In this document: one piece after another, positions 29,109 through 38,788 of the stretch
Position numbering within the stretch: position 1 is the stretch's first letter
Layout of the letters: every line of letters begins with the position of its first letter
Notes under the pieces: model-generated
Told to the model about the DNA's origin: nothing
What the model saw: the letters and a program-made list of their open reading frames with translations, nothing else
Database searches by the model: none
Made by a program: the position numbers and the translations under genes
Source of the DNA: Pseudanabaena sp. lw0831
Lineage (GTDB): Bacteria; Cyanobacteriota; Cyanobacteriia; Pseudanabaenales; Pseudanabaenaceae
Reading direction: 5' to 3'
Assembly: GCF_016584665.1 (NCBI RefSeq)
Contig: NZ_BBJB01000118.1
Coordinates: 1 to 64,000, forward strand
DNA: 64,000 nucleotides

Positions 29109-30854
29109 ATGTTTTATGCAAGTAGACGGGTAACTCACTTCGCGCCCAATTATTTTTTATCTTCTCTGCAATGGATATTATGTAGTGGGGTTGCTCTAAC
29201 AGGGTTTGCTACAGATGTGATCGCGCAATCTCGCATTACACCAGTTAGCCCTGAAGTGAAATCGGATCAGAATGTTAAAGAAACTCTACAAAATATTCGC
29301 ACTCTTTCACCCACAAAGCCCAAAGTTGCGGAGTCAGTAACATCGGTTTCACAATTGAGTGATGTGAGATCGACCGATTGGGCTTTTACCGCCTTGCAAT
29401 CTTTGGTCGAGCGCTACGGGTGTATTGCTGGTTATCCCGATCGCTCATTTCGTGGCAGACAAGCAGTTTCGCGGTACGAATTTGCGGCAGGGCTAAATGC
29501 CTGCTTGGACAAAATCAATGAAATTATCTCTACAGGTTTAGCCGACAAAGTCAGTAAAGAAGATCTTGCTACCATCCAAAAACTTCAAGAAGAGTTTGCG
29601 GCTGAATTAGCTATATTGCGCGGTCGAGTGGATACATTAGAAGCAAAAACCACCAAATTGGAAGCGCAGCAGTTTTCAACAATAACCAAACTGTATGGAC
29701 AGGCAATATTTGGCTTGCAGGGACGGTTGCGTAACTCGGCAGATCTAGCTCCTCGCAATGGCATCCTGACTGCTAATGAAGCTGATACCGCAACAAATCT
29801 CACATTGGGCTACGATCTGCAACTCAATTTACTCACACAATTTGATTTTCATAATCGGAGCTTACTCTTAGTCGGTTTACGCGCTGCAAATCTGACCACA
29901 GGTTCAGGCAATATTTTTCAAGACAACTTTACTCGTCTTGGCTATGAGGCTAATTCGGCTAATACATTCTTTCTTTCTGATTTGTCCTATCGCTTTATGG
30001 TGGGAGATAATGCTGTATTTATCGTTGGGACTGAAGGTGTAAATCCAGTAACCGTTTTTCGCGGTCCTAATCGAGTAGAGAGTGCTGGTTCGGGACCACT
30101 TTCAGCTTTTGCTCAGCGCAATCCGATTTTGGAACTTGGACGGAGTCGCGCAGGTGTTGGCTTTGATTGGCAGATCGCCGATCGCATCAGTTTGCAGGGT
30201 GTATATGCCGCAGGCGATCCCGCGAATCCAACCACATTAGGCAATGGTGGTGGTTTGTTCGGTAGTGATTACACATTAGGAGGGCAGCTAACACTTACTC
30301 CGACTGATGCGATCGATGTCGCCTTGTATTACCTTCATGCTTATACGACAGGTGGTTCTTTAAAAATATCCTCTGGTGATAGTTTGATCAGCAATGGCGG
30401 TGCGAATTTTCTGACTGATGCGATTGGGGCAACGCTCAACTGGCGGCTTAGTCCCTACCTCACGCTTGGCACGTGGGGCGGTTATACAAAATCCAATGCT
30501 GTCAATGGTGCAAATGGAACTGTAGAAACGACAAACTGGATGGTCTATCTCAATTTGCCCGATTTGTTTGGGCGTGGGAATCTTGGCGGCATCTATGTTG
30601 GACAACCACCCAAAATCGTCAGCAGCAATCTCTCCTTTGGTAACGTTCCTAGTGCAATTGGATTGAATGGTGTTGCCTTTGGTTCAGTGGGTTCTCAGCC
30701 CGCTAGTACAACTCATGTGGAACTGTTTTATCGCTATCGAATTTCTGACAATATCAGTATCACACCAGGAGTAATCTTTCTATTTAATCCCGTCCACACA
30801 TCCACAAGTGACACAATTACAATCGGCACAATTCGCACCACTTTTACGTTTTAA
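29109..30854 (+). CDS. Outer-membrane porin with SLH domain (OprB/iron-uptake porin family)
   Basis: This 581-aa major outer-membrane protein type of cyanobacteria has a signal peptide (to about residue 38). A periplasmic SLH domain (about 65-125: LSDVRSTDWAFTALQSLVERYGCIAGYPD) anchors to pyruvylated cell-wall polymer. A coiled coil (about 140-185) follows. A C-terminal OprB-type beta-barrel ends in phenylalanine (TIRTTFTF), the usual outer-membrane insertion signal. AAGGAGG precedes the ATG. Such proteins pass inorganic ions. A CHAT-domain gene follows after 56 bases on the same strand. Confidence 0.93.
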   Translation: MFYASRRVTHFAPNYFLSSLQWILCSGVALTGFATDVIAQSRITPVSPEVKSDQNVKETLQNIRTLSPTKPKVAESVTSVSQLSDVRSTDWAFTALQSLVERYGCIAGYPDRSFRGRQAVSRYEFAAGLNACLDKINEIISTGLADKVSKEDLATIQKLQEEFAAELAILRGRVDTLEAKTTKLEAQQFSTITKLYGQAIFGLQGRLRNSADLAPRNGILTANEADTATNLTLGYDLQLNLLTQFDFHNRSLLLVGLRAANLTTGSGNIFQDNFTRLGYEANSANTFFLSDLSYRFMVGDNAVFIVGTEGVNPVTVFRGPNRVESAGSGPLSAFAQRNPILELGRSRAGVGFDWQIADRISLQGVYAAGDPANPTTLGNGGGLFGSDYTLGGQLTLTPTDAIDVALYYLHAYTTGGSLKISSGDSLISNGGANFLTDAIGATLNWRLSPYLTLGTWGGYTKSNAVNGANGTVETTNWMVYLNLPDLFGRGNLGGIYVGQPPKIVSSNLSFGNVPSAIGLNGVAFGSVGSQPASTTHVELFYRYRISDNISITPGVIFLFNPVHTSTSDTITIGTIRTTFTF

Positions 30855-30919
30855 GCTGCGTCATGGATCAGAATGCTTTTTAGTACAGGAATTTTTGTAA
30901 GAGAAAGAGAGTGAAGTTT

Positions 30920-32389
30920 ATGAAAATGCGATCGCTTAGTTGGAAAGTTTTGCTAGTTCTACTTTTAAGTGGAATAGGCGCTTTGGATTACCACAATTCA
31001 GCATTAGGTCAATCAACATCAAGTTCATCATCAAGTTCTTCTAGCAATCAATCAGAGCAGCCCTATCATGACAATATTTTCCCAAATGGCGGTGGGCTAA
31101 GGGATCGATTGCTGGGTGTATTAGGTAACCAATTTAGCAAAGTACCAGCAGGATTGAACTCCCATCGGCGAGCAGGAGATTATTTCAATCGAAATCAATT
31201 GGAAGATGCGCAATATGCGATCGAACAATCTTACAATGATGAGCATCGCTATTATAGCAATGGCAATCTTACTCCTAGTCCTATGAGCCTTAGTGTGGCT
31301 CAGATTGCTTTACTCCGCTCTGAGCGAATTACCGACAGTGCAACAGCTTTAGTTTATCCCGTGATTTTTCCCGATCGTTTAGAGATCCTAGTCATCCCTT
31401 CATCAGGAAAACCGATTCATAAAGTTGTTACTGAAGCCCAAGAAGTGGAGATCTTGCGTGAGGCTCAAGATTTTGTGAGTAATATTCGGGATGTAAGCTC
31501 GACAGACTATTTAGACTCTGCTCAAACTCTATACAATTGGATAATTCGTCCAATTGATGCTGATTTACAAGCTGCCAACATCAAAACACTGGTCTTTGTA
31601 ATGGATGGTCCATTACGGGTAATTCCGATCGCCGCCTTACATGATGGCAAAGACTTTTTAGTTCAGAAATATGCGATCGCGACTGTGCCATCTATGGGAA
31701 TGGCGAATCTGAAATTACGAGATCGACGACGCAACAGCATTCTGGTAATGGGTCTCACCGATGCTATGCAAGGATTGTCGGCGCTACCTAGTGTCGAAGT
31801 GGAAGTTAATGGAATTGCCACACAAGTTTTACAGGGCGATGCTTTTCTCAACCAAGGCTTTACAATTGAGAATCTCAAGACCCAACAAAAAAAGAATAAC
31901 TATGGCATCGTGCATCTAGCTAGCCATGCCAAATTTGTGAGTAACACTATTAATGGTGCATTCATTCAAATGTGGAATGAGCGGCTATATATCGATCAAC
32001 TTAGATCGCTTAACCTCGGTTCGGAAGCAATTGAAATGTTGACGCTGAGCGCTTGTCAGACTGCTGTTGGCAAAAATCTCGGTTTAGGTGGTGTCGCTGC
32101 TCAATATGGCGCAAAAAGCGTGCTTGCATCTCTCTGGGTAGTAAGTGATGCTGGGACAGCGCCATTGATGCTATCTTTTTATCGCAATTACCCTACTGCT
32201 AAAAGTAAAGCGATCGCATTGCAGCAAACTCAAGTTGCGCTACTAACAGGAACTGTAAGAATTGAGGGTCAACAGATCCAAGGAATTCCCAATTTACCAG
32301 CAGTTCCCCTTAAGCAACTTAATCAAGCTATCGATCTGAAGCACCCATACTTTTGGGCTTCTTTTATCTTGGTTGGCAATTGGCTATAG
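30920..32389 (+). CDS. Secreted CHAT-domain (caspase-like) protein
   Basis: The roughly 489-aa protein has an N-terminal signal peptide (KVLLVLLLSGIGAL, ending near ALGQS) and a serine-rich linker. The C-terminal CHAT domain (about 215-485) has GPLRVIPIAAL, the catalytic histidine at about 336 in HLASHAKF and the cysteine at about 379 in LSACQTAVG. The dyad is intact. The usual long TPR array is missing; only a short helical part (about 65-110) precedes the protease. GTG at 30911 is an alternative start; ATG 30920 is preferred. It lies right behind the porin, suggesting an envelope-located role. Confidence 0.87.
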   Translation: MKMRSLSWKVLLVLLLSGIGALDYHNSALGQSTSSSSSSSSSNQSEQPYHDNIFPNGGGLRDRLLGVLGNQFSKVPAGLNSHRRAGDYFNRNQLEDAQYAIEQSYNDEHRYYSNGNLTPSPMSLSVAQIALLRSERITDSATALVYPVIFPDRLEILVIPSSGKPIHKVVTEAQEVEILREAQDFVSNIRDVSSTDYLDSAQTLYNWIIRPIDADLQAANIKTLVFVMDGPLRVIPIAALHDGKDFLVQKYAIATVPSMGMANLKLRDRRRNSILVMGLTDAMQGLSALPSVEVEVNGIATQVLQGDAFLNQGFTIENLKTQQKKNNYGIVHLASHAKFVSNTINGAFIQMWNERLYIDQLRSLNLGSEAIEMLTLSACQTAVGKNLGLGGVAAQYGAKSVLASLWVVSDAGTAPLMLSFYRNYPTAKSKAIALQQTQVALLTGTVRIEGQQIQGIPNLPAVPLKQLNQAIDLKHPYFWASFILVGNWL

Positions 32390-32637: not shown

Positions 32638-34677
32638 TTACTGCTCAAATTGTGGCATCTCTAGGGCAACTGGAACAAATTCTAGCTGAACAACGGCTTG
32701 TCGAACTTTGGCGGCGAAGGCGAGAGGATCGAGATCAAATTGCTCGAATAGCTCACGTCCTCGCAGACAGCGTAATTCAGGATTTTCGGCTGCGCCGCTT
32801 ACTACCCACAGCACAAAATCTTTGTTGCTACGGGCATTCTCAATCTCGATCGCAGAAATTGCAAAAGACTCGCGATCGCTAGTGAAGCTTTTAATCACCA
32901 CCGCTTCGCAAATGCCGTCTTTGGTGCATTCTAGATCGTATCCAACCTGAGATTTATCCACCGATCGCACCATCCAGCCATCGCGCATATATTGTGCCAT
33001 CACCGAAATCATCGCCAGTTTTTCAGCCGTACTCGGATCTTCAATGGAGAACGGAATTGGTTTCTCGACGACTTTCTCAACTACGCGATCGACAAACTTT
33101 TCGACTACGCGATCGACAACTCGCTCAACTTCAACAAATTTCTCAATCTCGACTATTTTTTCGACTTCAACAATCTTCTCGACCTCAACAATCTTTTCGA
33201 CTTCCACAATCTTTTCGACAATTTTCTCAACTTCCATAATCTTCTCGATCGCTTCAGTCAAATCCGATATCGCCTCTTCAGCTTTTGAGATAGCAACCTC
33301 ATTAGAAATTGCTTCTGTCGCAATAATCAGCTTGCTAGACTCCTCATCCCTATCATCAAGATCATCATTACTCGTAGCCATAGCTAGAGGGACTTCCGCA
33401 ACGATCGCTTCGGGAGTAGTATCTATAACTGAATCTGTTTCAGAAGCTGCGATCGCATAACTACTTCTTGGTCTTGCCTTAGGCAAAGAATCAATCGCAA
33501 GGGTTTCTAAAAATTCCTTAGCTTTTTTCGCCTTGTCAGGTTTACCCTGAGTTTGATATAGGACGATCGCCTTGCGTAAATCATCACCAGCAAGGGTCTC
33601 ATCGGCAATATCAGGTTGAGAATAGGTTAAGCCACGATAGTAGTAGGCATCAACATTACTGGGCTGCAATTCAATTGCATAGCTAAAGTCGCGAAGTGCT
33701 TCAGGAAATTCTTTGAGAATGTAATGCGATCGCCCTCGTCGAAATGCGGCTAAGTCAAGATTTGGGCTTAGCTCCATGGTGCGGCTATAGCAAGCGATCG
33801 CCTGCTCGTAACTCTTGAGCTTAAAGTATGTATTGCCAAGAGACATATGTGCATCAGCAAAATTTGGATCGATGGCGATCGATGCTTGGAAATCTGCCAT
33901 CGCTTGCTGAAGCTGCCCCAACAAAAAATTAATTTCGCCGCGCTTAAAATAAGCTAGACGCGCCTTGTCGGGACGCAAGGAAATCGCCTTGCCATAGTCA
34001 CCTACAGCTTTAGCATATTCGCGCAAACTTACATGAGCATCGCCCAAGCCCAGATATGCCTTGATAAAATTAGGATTGAGCTTCAGTGCTTGCCGAAAGG
34101 ACTCCAGCGCATCCTGTGGGAATCCTTGCTGAATATCCTCTAAGCCCCAACGGTAATACACATCAATTAAGCTAATCCCCTTGCCAGCCCGAAAAGCCTT
34201 TTGAGTTTGTTTCTCCCATTCGCGATCTAGCATCCGCACATATTCTTCGCGAAATACTCCCGCATCGGTTTGAGGTTCGAGGGGCATTCCTTGGAAATTG
34301 GGCAACTGCCGTAAATAATCTGTCCTGAGTGGCTCATCAAAGGTCACGCAAGCATCCCAAGCCACCCAGACCCGAAAGTTATTCGCCTCGGAGTCAATGT
34401 CATAGGCTTCGCTCAGTTCGCGATACCGCGCCGATCTCAGTTTGAGCTGATATTCGCGATCGGCTGGAACTATTGTCCCCGCTGCAAAATAGCCCTGATT
34501 GGCACTACCGATCCGCTTAAAGTAAGCGCGATCGCCCACCTTGAGAGTTTGAATATTGCCGCAGTTCCACGTAACGATATACTGCTCCCCCTCGGAGATA
34601 TCGGCGATCGCTTCACGAATAAAATCGCGAATCTCTGGCTCTGTCTGCTCGTTACACAGAAATATTCTTGTGACCAT
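32638..34677 (-). CDS. EVE/PUA-like + TPR + DUF3883 (PD-(D/E)XK-like) protein
   Basis: The 679-aa protein has four parts. Residues 1-150 look like an EVE/PUA-type reader: VGDRAYFKRIG, GYFAAGTIV, then PQTDAG as in the reader domains fused to HNH nucleases. Residues 165-390 carry about six TPRs. Residues 465-525 are a highly repetitive coiled coil (units like VEKIVEVE). The C-terminus (about 545-650) resembles DUF3883: GYDLECTKDG, EAVVIKS and NARSNKDFVLWVVS, with D, E and K in places expected for a PD-(D/E)XK nuclease-like core. A modified-DNA or RNA-sensing role is an inference. The TPR assignment is certain; the end domains are pattern calls. Confidence 0.75.
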   Translation of the reverse strand: MVTRIFLCNEQTEPEIRDFIREAIADISEGEQYIVTWNCGNIQTLKVGDRAYFKRIGSANQGYFAAGTIVPADREYQLKLRSARYRELSEAYDIDSEANNFRVWVAWDACVTFDEPLRTDYLRQLPNFQGMPLEPQTDAGVFREEYVRMLDREWEKQTQKAFRAGKGISLIDVYYRWGLEDIQQGFPQDALESFRQALKLNPNFIKAYLGLGDAHVSLREYAKAVGDYGKAISLRPDKARLAYFKRGEINFLLGQLQQAMADFQASIAIDPNFADAHMSLGNTYFKLKSYEQAIACYSRTMELSPNLDLAAFRRGRSHYILKEFPEALRDFSYAIELQPSNVDAYYYRGLTYSQPDIADETLAGDDLRKAIVLYQTQGKPDKAKKAKEFLETLAIDSLPKARPRSSYAIAASETDSVIDTTPEAIVAEVPLAMATSNDDLDDRDEESSKLIIATEAISNEVAISKAEEAISDLTEAIEKIMEVEKIVEKIVEVEKIVEVEKIVEVEKIVEIEKFVEVERVVDRVVEKFVDRVVEKVVEKPIPFSIEDPSTAEKLAMISVMAQYMRDGWMVRSVDKSQVGYDLECTKDGICEAVVIKSFTSDRESFAISAIEIENARSNKDFVLWVVSGAAENPELRCLRGRELFEQFDLDPLAFAAKVRQAVVQLEFVPVALEMPQFEQ

Positions 34678-34711: not shown

Positions 34712-34752
34712 GAGAAAATAGAGGGAGTGCGAAGCACTCCCTCTATTTTCTC
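34712..34752. terminator. Hairpin at the end of aroH
   Basis: A perfect palindrome with arms GAGAAAATAGAGGGAGTGC, GAA loop and complement. The right end includes the aroH stop codon. It precedes the large TPR gene on the same strand. Confidence 0.7.
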
Positions 34753-35131
34753 AAATTTGAGCGTAAACGAGGTCGGGACGCAAATCTCTAGCTCCGTTTA
34801 AGTAAATATGCTTAATCTGATGTTGCTCAAGCGGCGTATTCACATGAATTAATACCCTGATACAACGCTCTAAACTGCCCTTAACATACATTTGCTGCAC
34901 ATCTAAAAGCGGGACATTTTCCCATTGCGATCGCGATCGGGCGATTTTGGCAGGAAAGACCACATCAATATCTGTTGTTGCCGAAAAAGTAGCACTTACT
35001 ATTTCGCGCGGATCAATGTCATTTTGTGCCTCGATCTCCTCCATAAGCTCTAGCACAGCCCTCTCAAGGGCTTCGTATGTATTTGCCTCAACTGTTGTTG
35101 CACCACGAACGCCACGTACACGCCAACCCAC
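34751..35131 (-). CDS. aroH: Chorismate mutase, AroH type
   Basis: AroH rearranges chorismate to prephenate for Phe/Tyr synthesis. The 126-aa monofunctional enzyme shows the family start WRVRGVRGATTVEANT, FSATTDIDVVFPAK, VPLLDVQQM and VLIHVNT. Size and motifs fit the trimeric Bacillus-type AroH rather than the AroQ type. The end of the gene lies in a hairpin. A family B element is upstream. Confidence 0.95.
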   Translation of the reverse strand: MGWRVRGVRGATTVEANTYEALERAVLELMEEIEAQNDIDPREIVSATFSATTDIDVVFPAKIARSRSQWENVPLLDVQQMYVKGSLERCIRVLIHVNTPLEQHQIKHIYLNGARDLRPDLVYAQI

Positions 35132-35173: not shown

Positions 35174-35276
35174 AAAGTAGCTAGGCATAATTAAATATAA
35201 ACCCCTAAAATGTGTACCGCCCGCGCAGCGGGCGGTACACATTTTGGTTCTATTTTTTATTTATGCCGAGGTACTA
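35174..35276. mobile_element. MITE-like element, family B
   Basis: The left end AAAGTAGCTAGGCATAATTA and the right end TTATGCCGAGGTACTA are inverted. The centre is a GTACCGCCCGC stem around GCAGC. It sits between divergent aroH and a small membrane-protein gene. Confidence 0.75.
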
Positions 35277-36583: not shown

Positions 36584-38788
36584 TTATTTATCCTTCATGG
36601 TTTCGCCCATAGTCTCATAATTTTGGCGGGCTGTGACTGTATTGTGATGATCGGAACCAAGGGCTTTTTCAAGAATTTGGATAGCTCGCAGAAAGAGAGG
36701 TTCGGCTTCGCTGTACTTCCCTTGCGATCGGTAAAGTCCTGCGAGATTGTTGAGACTGGTGGCGACATAGGGATGGTCTGCTCCTAGTTGGCGTTCCTTA
36801 ATTTCGATTGATCGCAGATAGAAAGGTTCGGCTTCGCTGTACTTCCCTTGCGATTTGTAAAGTAATGCGAGAGCGTTGAGACTGTAGGCGACATCGGGAT
36901 GGTCTGCTCCTAGTTGGCGTTCCCTGATTTCAAGCGTTCGCAGATAGAGAGGTTCGGCTTCGCTGTACTTCCCTTGCGATTCGTAAAGTTGTGCGAGATT
37001 GTTGAGACTGGAGGCGACATCGGGATGATATTCTCCATCATAGATGCGTTTATAGATTTCGAGTGATCGCAGCAAGAGAGGTTCGGCTTCGCTGTACCTC
37101 CCTTGCGCTCGATAAATTTGTGCGAGACCGTTGAGACTTTGAGCGACATCGGGATGGTCTGCTCCTAGTTGGCGTTCCTTAATTTCGATTGATCGCAGAT
37201 AGAAAGGTTCGGTGTCGCTGTACTTCCCTTGCGATTCGTAAAGTAATGCGAGATTGTTGAGGATTATAGGTGCATGGAGAGGGGCTATGCACTGTTCTTC
37301 TATGATTTCAAGCAATCGAATGCTGAGAGATTCTGCTTCGCAATAAATCCCTTGCGAACGGTAAAATTCTGCGAGATTGTAAAGGCTTATGGTAAAAGAG
37401 GGACAGAAAATAATTGTGTATGATTCATCAGATTTTAGTTGATGCCCTCTGATTTCGATTGCTCGCAGATAAAGGAGTTCGGCTTCGCTAAACTTTCCCT
37501 GAGATTTATAAAGGGCGGCAAGATTATTGAGACTCCAGACGACTGGGTCAGGATGTACTTCTGGTTGTCGTTGTCGTTCCCTGATTTCAAGCGATCGCAG
37601 ATAGAGCGGTTCGGCTTCGCTGTACTTCCCTTGAGATCGGTAACATTCTGCGAGATTATTCAGTCCATTAGCGGAATGTTGCTGCCCTCTAATTTCGAGC
37701 GATCGCAGGTAGAGCGGTTCGGCTTCGCTGTACTTCCCTTGCACTAGGTAAATTCCTGCAAGAGTATTGAGGATTCGAGAAACAAATTCATGATCTGCAC
37801 CATAAACTTGCTCCCAGATTTCGAGCCATCGCAAATAGAGAGGTTCGGCATTGCTGTACTTCCCTTGAGAATAGTAAATTAATGCGAGATTACTGAGTCT
37901 CTCGACAATAGAGTGTGGGTATGAATCTATTCGCTGTTCAGCGATTTCGAGCAATCGCAGATAGAGAGGTTCAGCTTCACGGTATTTACCTTGCGCACGA
38001 TAAAGTTCTGCGAGCTTGTTGAGACTGGAGGCGAGAATGGGATGGTGTGTGCCTATCTGCCGCTCGAAAAGCTCCAAATCTTTTTGATGAAGTTTTTCAA
38101 TTTTAGAATATGAAAATGAATTTACACCTAATAATTCTCTTTGGGCTCTGTCTATATCGCGCATAAGATTGTCTCGAAGAGGCGATTCAGGGTCTTGAGC
38201 GTTCAATTCATCCATTCGTTTTTGCAGTTCAACAGGAATTACAAATGGAGTTGGCGTTGGCAGCGGTTTACGCCGCTTCATGAGCAAAGTTATCGGCTGG
38301 GAGAAATCAAATACACCATTCCGCCAACTCCAAAAAACGGGAGCTTGTTTTGCCAGAGAGTTAGCGATCTCTGGAGTTAGCCAGATCAAAATAGAAAACG
38401 TAAATTCTTGCCATGATTTCAAAGTCCCTTGCAAAGAGGAATAGAATTGTTCTTCAGTGGATTTTGTCTCATCTAAGCGAATATTTGTTAGTGCATCTGC
38501 CACCATCACTGTAACCAACACAGCTGCATTTAATGAATTTAGCCCTGATTCACTCTCTACTAAATCTAGCAAGCACTTACTCAGACTAGGTTGCTGACTC
38601 GTTACATTGACGCGATGACAACTTACACCATTAGCATTCAATTCCGTCTCATAGTTAAAGATTATTTCATTACGAGAATTCTGATTGTCACAGATAGCTA
38701 CTAACAAGTTTAATTTCCCATGACTAGCTTGTACCGACTTGATCAACTGTCTCAAATCATTTTGGCCCTGACTATCTTGATCTTGCAT
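36584..38788 (-). CDS. Kinesin-light-chain-type TPR protein with N-terminal effector-like domain
   Basis: The 734-aa protein has about eleven 42-residue TPRs from about residue 240 on, built on units like SQGKYSEAEPLYLRSLEI and LGADHPDVA. The units are so alike that the DNA itself is repetitive. The N-terminal part (about 1-190) is alpha/beta without a Walker motif and has FWSWRNGVFDF; similar N-terminal parts head many cyanobacterial TPR or STAND-like proteins. It may serve as a protein-interaction scaffold. The stop codon is followed directly by the ATG of the damaged hicA. A TPR fragment on the far side of hicAB suggests the locus was rearranged. Confidence 0.85.
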   Translation of the reverse strand: MQDQDSQGQNDLRQLIKSVQASHGKLNLLVAICDNQNSRNEIIFNYETELNANGVSCHRVNVTSQQPSLSKCLLDLVESESGLNSLNAAVLVTVMVADALTNIRLDETKSTEEQFYSSLQGTLKSWQEFTFSILIWLTPEIANSLAKQAPVFWSWRNGVFDFSQPITLLMKRRKPLPTPTPFVIPVELQKRMDELNAQDPESPLRDNLMRDIDRAQRELLGVNSFSYSKIEKLHQKDLELFERQIGTHHPILASSLNKLAELYRAQGKYREAEPLYLRLLEIAEQRIDSYPHSIVERLSNLALIYYSQGKYSNAEPLYLRWLEIWEQVYGADHEFVSRILNTLAGIYLVQGKYSEAEPLYLRSLEIRGQQHSANGLNNLAECYRSQGKYSEAEPLYLRSLEIRERQRQPEVHPDPVVWSLNNLAALYKSQGKFSEAELLYLRAIEIRGHQLKSDESYTIIFCPSFTISLYNLAEFYRSQGIYCEAESLSIRLLEIIEEQCIAPLHAPIILNNLALLYESQGKYSDTEPFYLRSIEIKERQLGADHPDVAQSLNGLAQIYRAQGRYSEAEPLLLRSLEIYKRIYDGEYHPDVASSLNNLAQLYESQGKYSEAEPLYLRTLEIRERQLGADHPDVAYSLNALALLYKSQGKYSEAEPFYLRSIEIKERQLGADHPYVATSLNNLAGLYRSQGKYSEAEPLFLRAIQILEKALGSDHHNTVTARQNYETMGETMKDK

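What the first reader, a model, noticed from the sequence alone, without database searches (positions are those of the whole stretch)
32638..34677. Reader-TPR-nuclease-like fusion (EVE/PUA-like + TPR + DUF3883)
An N-terminal EVE/PUA-like part with PQTDAG, and a C-terminal DUF3883 part with GYDL, EAVVIKS, flank TPRs and a repetitive coiled coil. EVE/PUA readers joined to PD-(D/E)XK or HNH domains occur in modification-dependent restriction. This may be an undescribed single-gene sensor of modified nucleic acid, in a genome rich in HIP1 sites that are methylation targets in many cyanobacteria.
Basis: inference. Interest (0 to 1): 0.65.

Follow-up and report, generated by a model that had tools for sequence, protein, structure and literature searches.

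The report
Modified-base reader with dead nuclease
A gene carried by every Pseudanabaena genome searched joins a domain that looks built to recognise chemically modified DNA or RNA letters to a protein-docking repeat and a nuclease domain that has lost a catalytic residue, so it looks like a former defence enzyme kept by the cell for another job.

Summary
The open reading frame is real: 679 aa, minus strand, 32638-34677. The N-terminus is an EVE/PUA-fold modified-base reader domain, followed by TPRs. The C-terminus is a DUF3883 (NOV_C) domain with a PD-(D/E)XK nuclease fold. The nuclease reading does not hold for this protein. The Glu of the D...ExK triad is Val or Ile in all 17 Pseudanabaena full-length orthologues aligned; Asp581 and Lys596 remain. 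In the rest of Pseudanabaenaceae every copy also lacks one triad residue, and a different one in one genus. Six Nostocaceae proteins of the same architecture keep an intact triad and are patchily distributed; one lies on a mobilizable plasmid near a cytosine methyltransferase. Sister proteins carry the same EVE-TPR sensor with an HNH nuclease instead. The Pseudanabaena gene is single-copy, in 26/26 genomes, next to aroH, and under strong purifying selection in both the EVE and the dead nuclease domain (dN/dS about 0.03). Best reading: a modification-dependent nuclease that was domesticated, lost catalysis and was kept as a nucleic-acid-binding reader/scaffold. The ligand is unknown. A link to HIP1 cytosine methylation is not supported by co-occurrence.

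The parts
32638..34677 (-). EVE-TPR-DUF3883 protein, 679 aa
   Evidence: ORF; 26/26 same-genus genomes
34198..34677 (-). EVE/PUA-fold domain, residues 1-160; W37 (34567-34569) and Y85 (34423-34425) are invariant aromatics, PQTDAG at 34261-34278
   Evidence: AlphaFold model and structure matches; alignments; EVE PF01878 in relatives
33523..34197 (-). linker helix plus TPR repeats, residues 161-385; the linker and first TPR are shared with the Nostocaceae EVE-TPR-HNH and EVE-TPR-DUF3883 proteins
   Evidence: Pfam TPR_1 1.8e-36; BLASTP 35% over 218 aa with L108; alignment
33322..33522 (-). fast-evolving low-complexity linker, residues 386-452
   Evidence: dN/dS 0.195, 63% mean identity
33034..33321 (-). 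VEK repeat stalk (EKIVEV hexads, then VDRVVEK units), residues 453-548; copy number varies; none in the relative L101
32698..33033 (-). DUF3883/NOV_C domain with PD-(D/E)XK fold, residues 549-660, catalytic Glu lost: D581 (32935-32937), V594 in place of Glu (32896-32898), K596 (32890-32892)
34751..35131 (-). aroH, chorismate mutase type I, conserved upstream neighbour in nearly all Pseudanabaena loci examined
   Evidence: Pfam CM_1 3.5e-47; synteny

Best explanation
The protein descends from a single-gene, modification-dependent nuclease made of an EVE reader, a TPR module and a PD-(D/E)XK effector. In Pseudanabaenaceae the effector lost its catalytic triad and, in Pseudanabaena, the gene became a fixed core gene. 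It most likely now works as a non-cutting reader/scaffold. The EVE domain would flip and bind a modified base in DNA or RNA, using W37 and Y85 as aromatic walls. The TPRs would dock a partner protein. The flexible VEK stalk would hold the DUF3883 domain, which may still bind nucleic acid or dimerise. Shown: domain folds by model and homology, loss of the triad, fixation, purifying selection, and intact relatives elsewhere. Inferred: base binding, the partner, and absence of cutting (about 0.85 likely inactive). Unknown: which base, and DNA or RNA.
For: Folds: EVE/YTH-type readers for the N-terminus; PD-(D/E)XK for the C-terminus; DUF3883 homology. Triad: position 594 is V/I in 17/17 Pseudanabaena full-length orthologues, A in g8 and S in g6; g7 has the Glu but Lys in place of Asp. 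Six Nostocaceae proteins of the same layout have intact D-E-K and the five scanned hit PF13020 at 5.5e-10 to 8e-14. Their C-domains share the G.E.L..F.L.P tail with the Pseudanabaenaceae ones, so the whole protein is homologous. The tree of EVE plus first TPR groups all Pseudanabaenaceae copies (99/97), with g7 branching first (remaining 12 rows 88/80), so D loss and E loss are most simply separate events. dN/dS: EVE 0.027, TPR 0.042, C-domain 0.035, linker 0.195. Core gene: 26/26 genomes of the genus, 4/8 genera of the family, fixed next to aroH; rare elsewhere in the phylum. Intact relative on a mobilizable plasmid of Tolypothrix PCC 7712 near a cytosine methyltransferase. Precedent for co-option of an EVE-bearing restriction protein: PcdA (PMC10602043).
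Against: No biochemical data. An acid elsewhere, for example the conserved Glu611 of the second helix (15 residues after K596) or Glu591, could substitute; NgoMIV/Cfr10I-type enzymes carry their second acid on that helix (own knowledge). The g7 state rests on one incomplete genome. Pocket assignment is by sequence alignment; no ligand-bound comparison was possible. The wedge Gln (Q135) is not conserved across the family.
Confidence: 0.62

Rival explanations
1. An active modification-dependent restriction nuclease, with catalysis rescued by another acid (Glu611 on the second helix or Glu591), that cuts modified phage DNA.
For: D581, K596 and E611 are invariant in the genus; the C-domain stays under strong purifying selection; relatives with an intact triad or an HNH domain exist.
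Against: E611 is present in intact DUF3883 domains too, so it is not a new compensating residue. E591 should lie on the other face of the strand from K596. g7 lost the Asp instead. The gene is fixed and single-copy beside aroH, unlike restriction genes. Every Pseudanabaena genome encodes C5 methyltransferases, so a 5mC-triggered cutter would risk self-cleavage.
Confidence: 0.13
2. An RNA-side reader: the EVE domain binds a modified tRNA, rRNA or mRNA base and the TPRs recruit an RNA-handling partner.
For: Structure matches include YTH RNA-binding domains such as Mmi1 and YTHDF2 and tRNA splicing endonuclease subunits for the C-domain; a housekeeping distribution suits a constant cellular ligand.
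Against: The closest EVE-effector fusions found (EVE-HNH, EVE-TPR-HNH) look like DNA restriction enzymes. EVE, YTH and ASCH folds do not separate DNA from RNA.
Confidence: 0.17
3. An ordinary TPR scaffold whose two end domains are relics without nucleic-acid binding.
For: Pfam sees only TPRs in the window protein.
Against: The EVE domain is the most constrained part (dN/dS 0.027), and its two aromatic columns are kept across family members with different effectors.
Confidence: 0.08

Closest known systems
EVE-HNH modification-dependent restriction endonucleases (VcaM4I, PDB 6yex; PMC7897488)
   Same: N-terminal EVE-fold reader joined to a C-terminal nuclease fold; fold match Z 9.1; EVE-HNH relatives align with the window EVE domain.
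   Different: TPR module and VEK stalk between; effector is DUF3883/PD-(D/E)XK, not HNH, and lacks the catalytic Glu; core gene.
Nostocaceae EVE-TPR-DUF3883 proteins (e.g. WP_264268008.1, Tolypothrix PCC 7712 plasmid, annotated only as DUF3883 domain-containing)
   Same: Same domain order, 39.6% identity over the first 207 aa, homologous C-domain.
   Different: Intact D-E-K triad, at most one TPR match, no VEK stalk, patchy; one copy plasmid-borne.
Nostocaceae EVE-TPR-HNH_2 proteins (L063, L106, L108)
   Same: Same EVE-linker-first TPR module, 35% identity over 218 aa.
   Different: HNH_2 effector in place of DUF3883 (PF13391 7.8e-15).
DUF3883/NOV_C domains of SNF2/DEAD helicases
   Same: Homologous C-domain, profile probability 98.6.
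   Different: Helicase-linked copies keep IEVK; here VVIK.
PcdA of Staphylococcus aureus (PMC10602043)
   Same: EVE-bearing restriction-family protein turned to a cell function.
   Different: McrB AAA+ protein; no TPR or DUF3883.
CoCoNuTs and McrBC systems (PMC11090510)
   Same: EVE-superfamily readers joined to nucleases, often with coiled coils.
   Different: Multi-gene, GTPase-driven; no GTPase in this protein.

Membership tests
EVE / PUA-like reader domains | PUA-like beta-barrel fold | tested here: met
   AlphaFold pLDDT 87.5; EVE, YTH and ASCH chains fill the top matches
EVE / PUA-like reader domains | Pfam EVE PF01878 above cut-off in the protein itself | tested here: not met
   No EVE hit among the 25 families shown for the window protein at E up to 1; the EVE-HNH relative L064 passes
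EVE / PUA-like reader domains | aromatic walls of the base pocket | tested here: inconclusive
   W37 and Y85 invariant (W/W in EVE-HNH relatives) by alignment; not superposed on a ligand complex
EVE / PUA-like reader domains | binding of a modified base | not testable with these tools
   needs EMSA or a structure
DUF3883 / NOV_C | PF13020 match or profile homology | tested here: met
   orthologues 2.5e-7 and 7.6e-4; hhalign 98.6
PD-(D/E)XK nucleases | alpha-beta-beta-beta-alpha-beta core fold | tested here: met
PD-(D/E)XK nucleases | D...ExK catalytic triad | tested here: not met
   V594 in place of Glu; 17/17 Pseudanabaena V/I
Modification-dependent (type IV-like) restriction enzymes | reader fused to an active nuclease | tested here: not met
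   catalytic Glu absent; activity itself not tested
Modification-dependent (type IV-like) restriction enzymes | patchy, accessory, defence-like distribution | tested here: not met
   26/26 in the genus, fixed beside aroH; no PADLOC family beyond generic TPR models

The most novel reading that the evidence does not exclude
Pseudanabaenaceae have turned a modification-dependent nuclease into a resident bacterial epigenetic or epitranscriptomic reader: a core, non-cutting EVE protein that binds the cell's own modified bases and recruits partners through TPRs, comparable in role to YTH or SRA readers of eukaryotes.
Probability: 0.3. Interest if true: 0.8.

Novelty: new variant of a known kind. Interest (0 to 1): 0.52.

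Why it matters
Bacteria write many DNA and RNA modifications, but dedicated readers that do something other than cut are rarely identified. Here one conserved gene, in culturable cyanobacteria, offers a candidate with a clear evolutionary control: relatives that keep the nuclease triad, and a sister set with the same sensor and a different nuclease. That makes domestication of a restriction enzyme directly testable.

Tried and rejected
Tried: Pfam, NCBIfam and PADLOC on the window protein (TPR only). Sequence searches of the PDB with the EVE and C-domain profiles (nothing useful) and with the EVE-HNH relatives (only HNH-region hits). Viral contigs with the EVE-TPR profile (none). Plasmids (one, Tolypothrix). 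Rejected: a functional link to the neighbouring HindVP restriction-modification module seen in four Pseudanabaena genomes, because the same module sits elsewhere in four others and does not appear among the C5-methyltransferase hits of the window genome. Rejected: HIP1 methylation as the demonstrated ligand. Rejected: pseudogene decay, by dN/dS. Bell et al. 2020 (PMC7641849), the main survey of EVE contexts, does not mention TPR, cyanobacteria or DUF3883 in its main text; supplements were not readable.

Full report
Observation. The ORF 32638-34677 on the minus strand encodes 679 aa. Pfam finds only TPRs in it, so the two end domains were tested through relatives and models.

EVE domain. Distant relatives give the family: L064 is EVE (PF01878, 4e-5) plus HNH; L061 is EVE alone. 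An alignment of 22 relatives gave a good AlphaFold model. All leading PDB matches are PUA-fold readers: EVE proteins 2ar1 and 2eve, YTH domains, human THYN1 with 5mC DNA, and VcaM4I. Two aromatic columns are kept throughout, W37 and Y85; both are Trp in the EVE-HNH relatives. In VcaM4I the flipped cytosine is sandwiched by W82 and Y130, with Q128 as the wedge (PMC7897488). By alignment position Y85 is the likely W82 equivalent and Q135 of PQTDAG the wedge equivalent; this is inference.

C-domain. Orthologues from other genera hit NOV_C/DUF3883 PF13020, and the profile matches helicase DUF3883 domains. The model has a PD-(D/E)XK core, though single Z values are modest. Helicase and viral DUF3883 domains read IEVK (one reads VEVK); the window reads VVIK.

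Loss of catalysis. Across 17 full-length Pseudanabaena proteins, D581 and K596 never vary and position 594 is Val or Ile (the 18th row of that alignment, L101, is genus g8). In genus g8 it is Ala, in g6 Ser with Arg for Lys; in g7 the Glu is present but the Asp is Lys. The EVE-TPR tree puts g7 first among the Pseudanabaenaceae copies, so two separate losses are the simplest reading.

Intact relatives. A search of 193 Nostocaceae genomes with a Nostocaceae EVE-TPR-HNH protein found 11 near-full-length EVE-TPR-HNH_2 proteins, and six more hits matched mainly the EVE-TPR part. Reading those six showed DUF3883 C-termini with complete D-E-K, confirmed by Pfam in the five scanned. The EVE, the linker and first TPR, and the DUF3883 tail all align with the window protein. 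One copy is on mobilizable plasmid NZ_CP063798 of Tolypothrix PCC 7712, beside an integrase gene and 1.4 kb from a DNA cytosine methyltransferase. That DUF3883 gene is listed among genes unique to PCC 7712 against PCC 7601 (PMC9679502). So the same sensor module is joined to two kinds of nuclease, and the intact forms look accessory.

Core status in Pseudanabaena. Single full-length copy in all 26 genomes of the genus, counting the window's own (one genome has an extra EVE-only paralogue, and one copy is split over two contigs), in 4 of 8 genera of the family, and rare in the rest of the phylum (8 of 386 sampled genomes including three of the genus). aroH lies upstream in nearly all loci. dN/dS is 0.027 for EVE, 0.042 for TPR, 0.035 for the C-domain, against 0.195 for the linker; NG86 with high dS, so the ratios are rough. 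The dead domain is therefore still used.

Methylation link. Every Pseudanabaena genome has C5 methyltransferases, one of them in 26/26. A live 5mC cutter would be risky there, which fits the loss of the Glu. But reader and that methyltransferase do not co-occur by genus (g6 reader only; g2, g4, g5 methyltransferase only), so host 5mC is a candidate ligand and not a shown one.

Conclusion. Domesticated, probably non-cutting descendant of a modification-dependent nuclease, kept as a reader/scaffold.

Noticed in passing
   Followed up: partly
window 1-64000: HIP1 (GCGATCGC) occurs 99 times in the window against 1 expected.
   Followed up: partly
window 35205-35247: A 20-pair hairpin followed by T-rich sequence, terminator-like.
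   Followed up: no
window 29109-32389: OprB porin and CHAT-domain protein genes in tandem on the plus strand.
   Followed up: no
window 36584-38788: 734-aa protein with at least ten TPR_10/TPR_12 repeats and a unique N-terminal part.
   Followed up: no
L146:1172-1738; L107:10001-10498; L147: Stand-alone EVE proteins of about 165-189 aa (open-frame lengths) in one Pseudanabaena genome and in Nostocaceae, a separate clade.
   Followed up: partly
L155:5277-7145: Helicase resembling type IV mREase and PbeA models near an intact EVE-TPR-DUF3883 gene.
   Followed up: no
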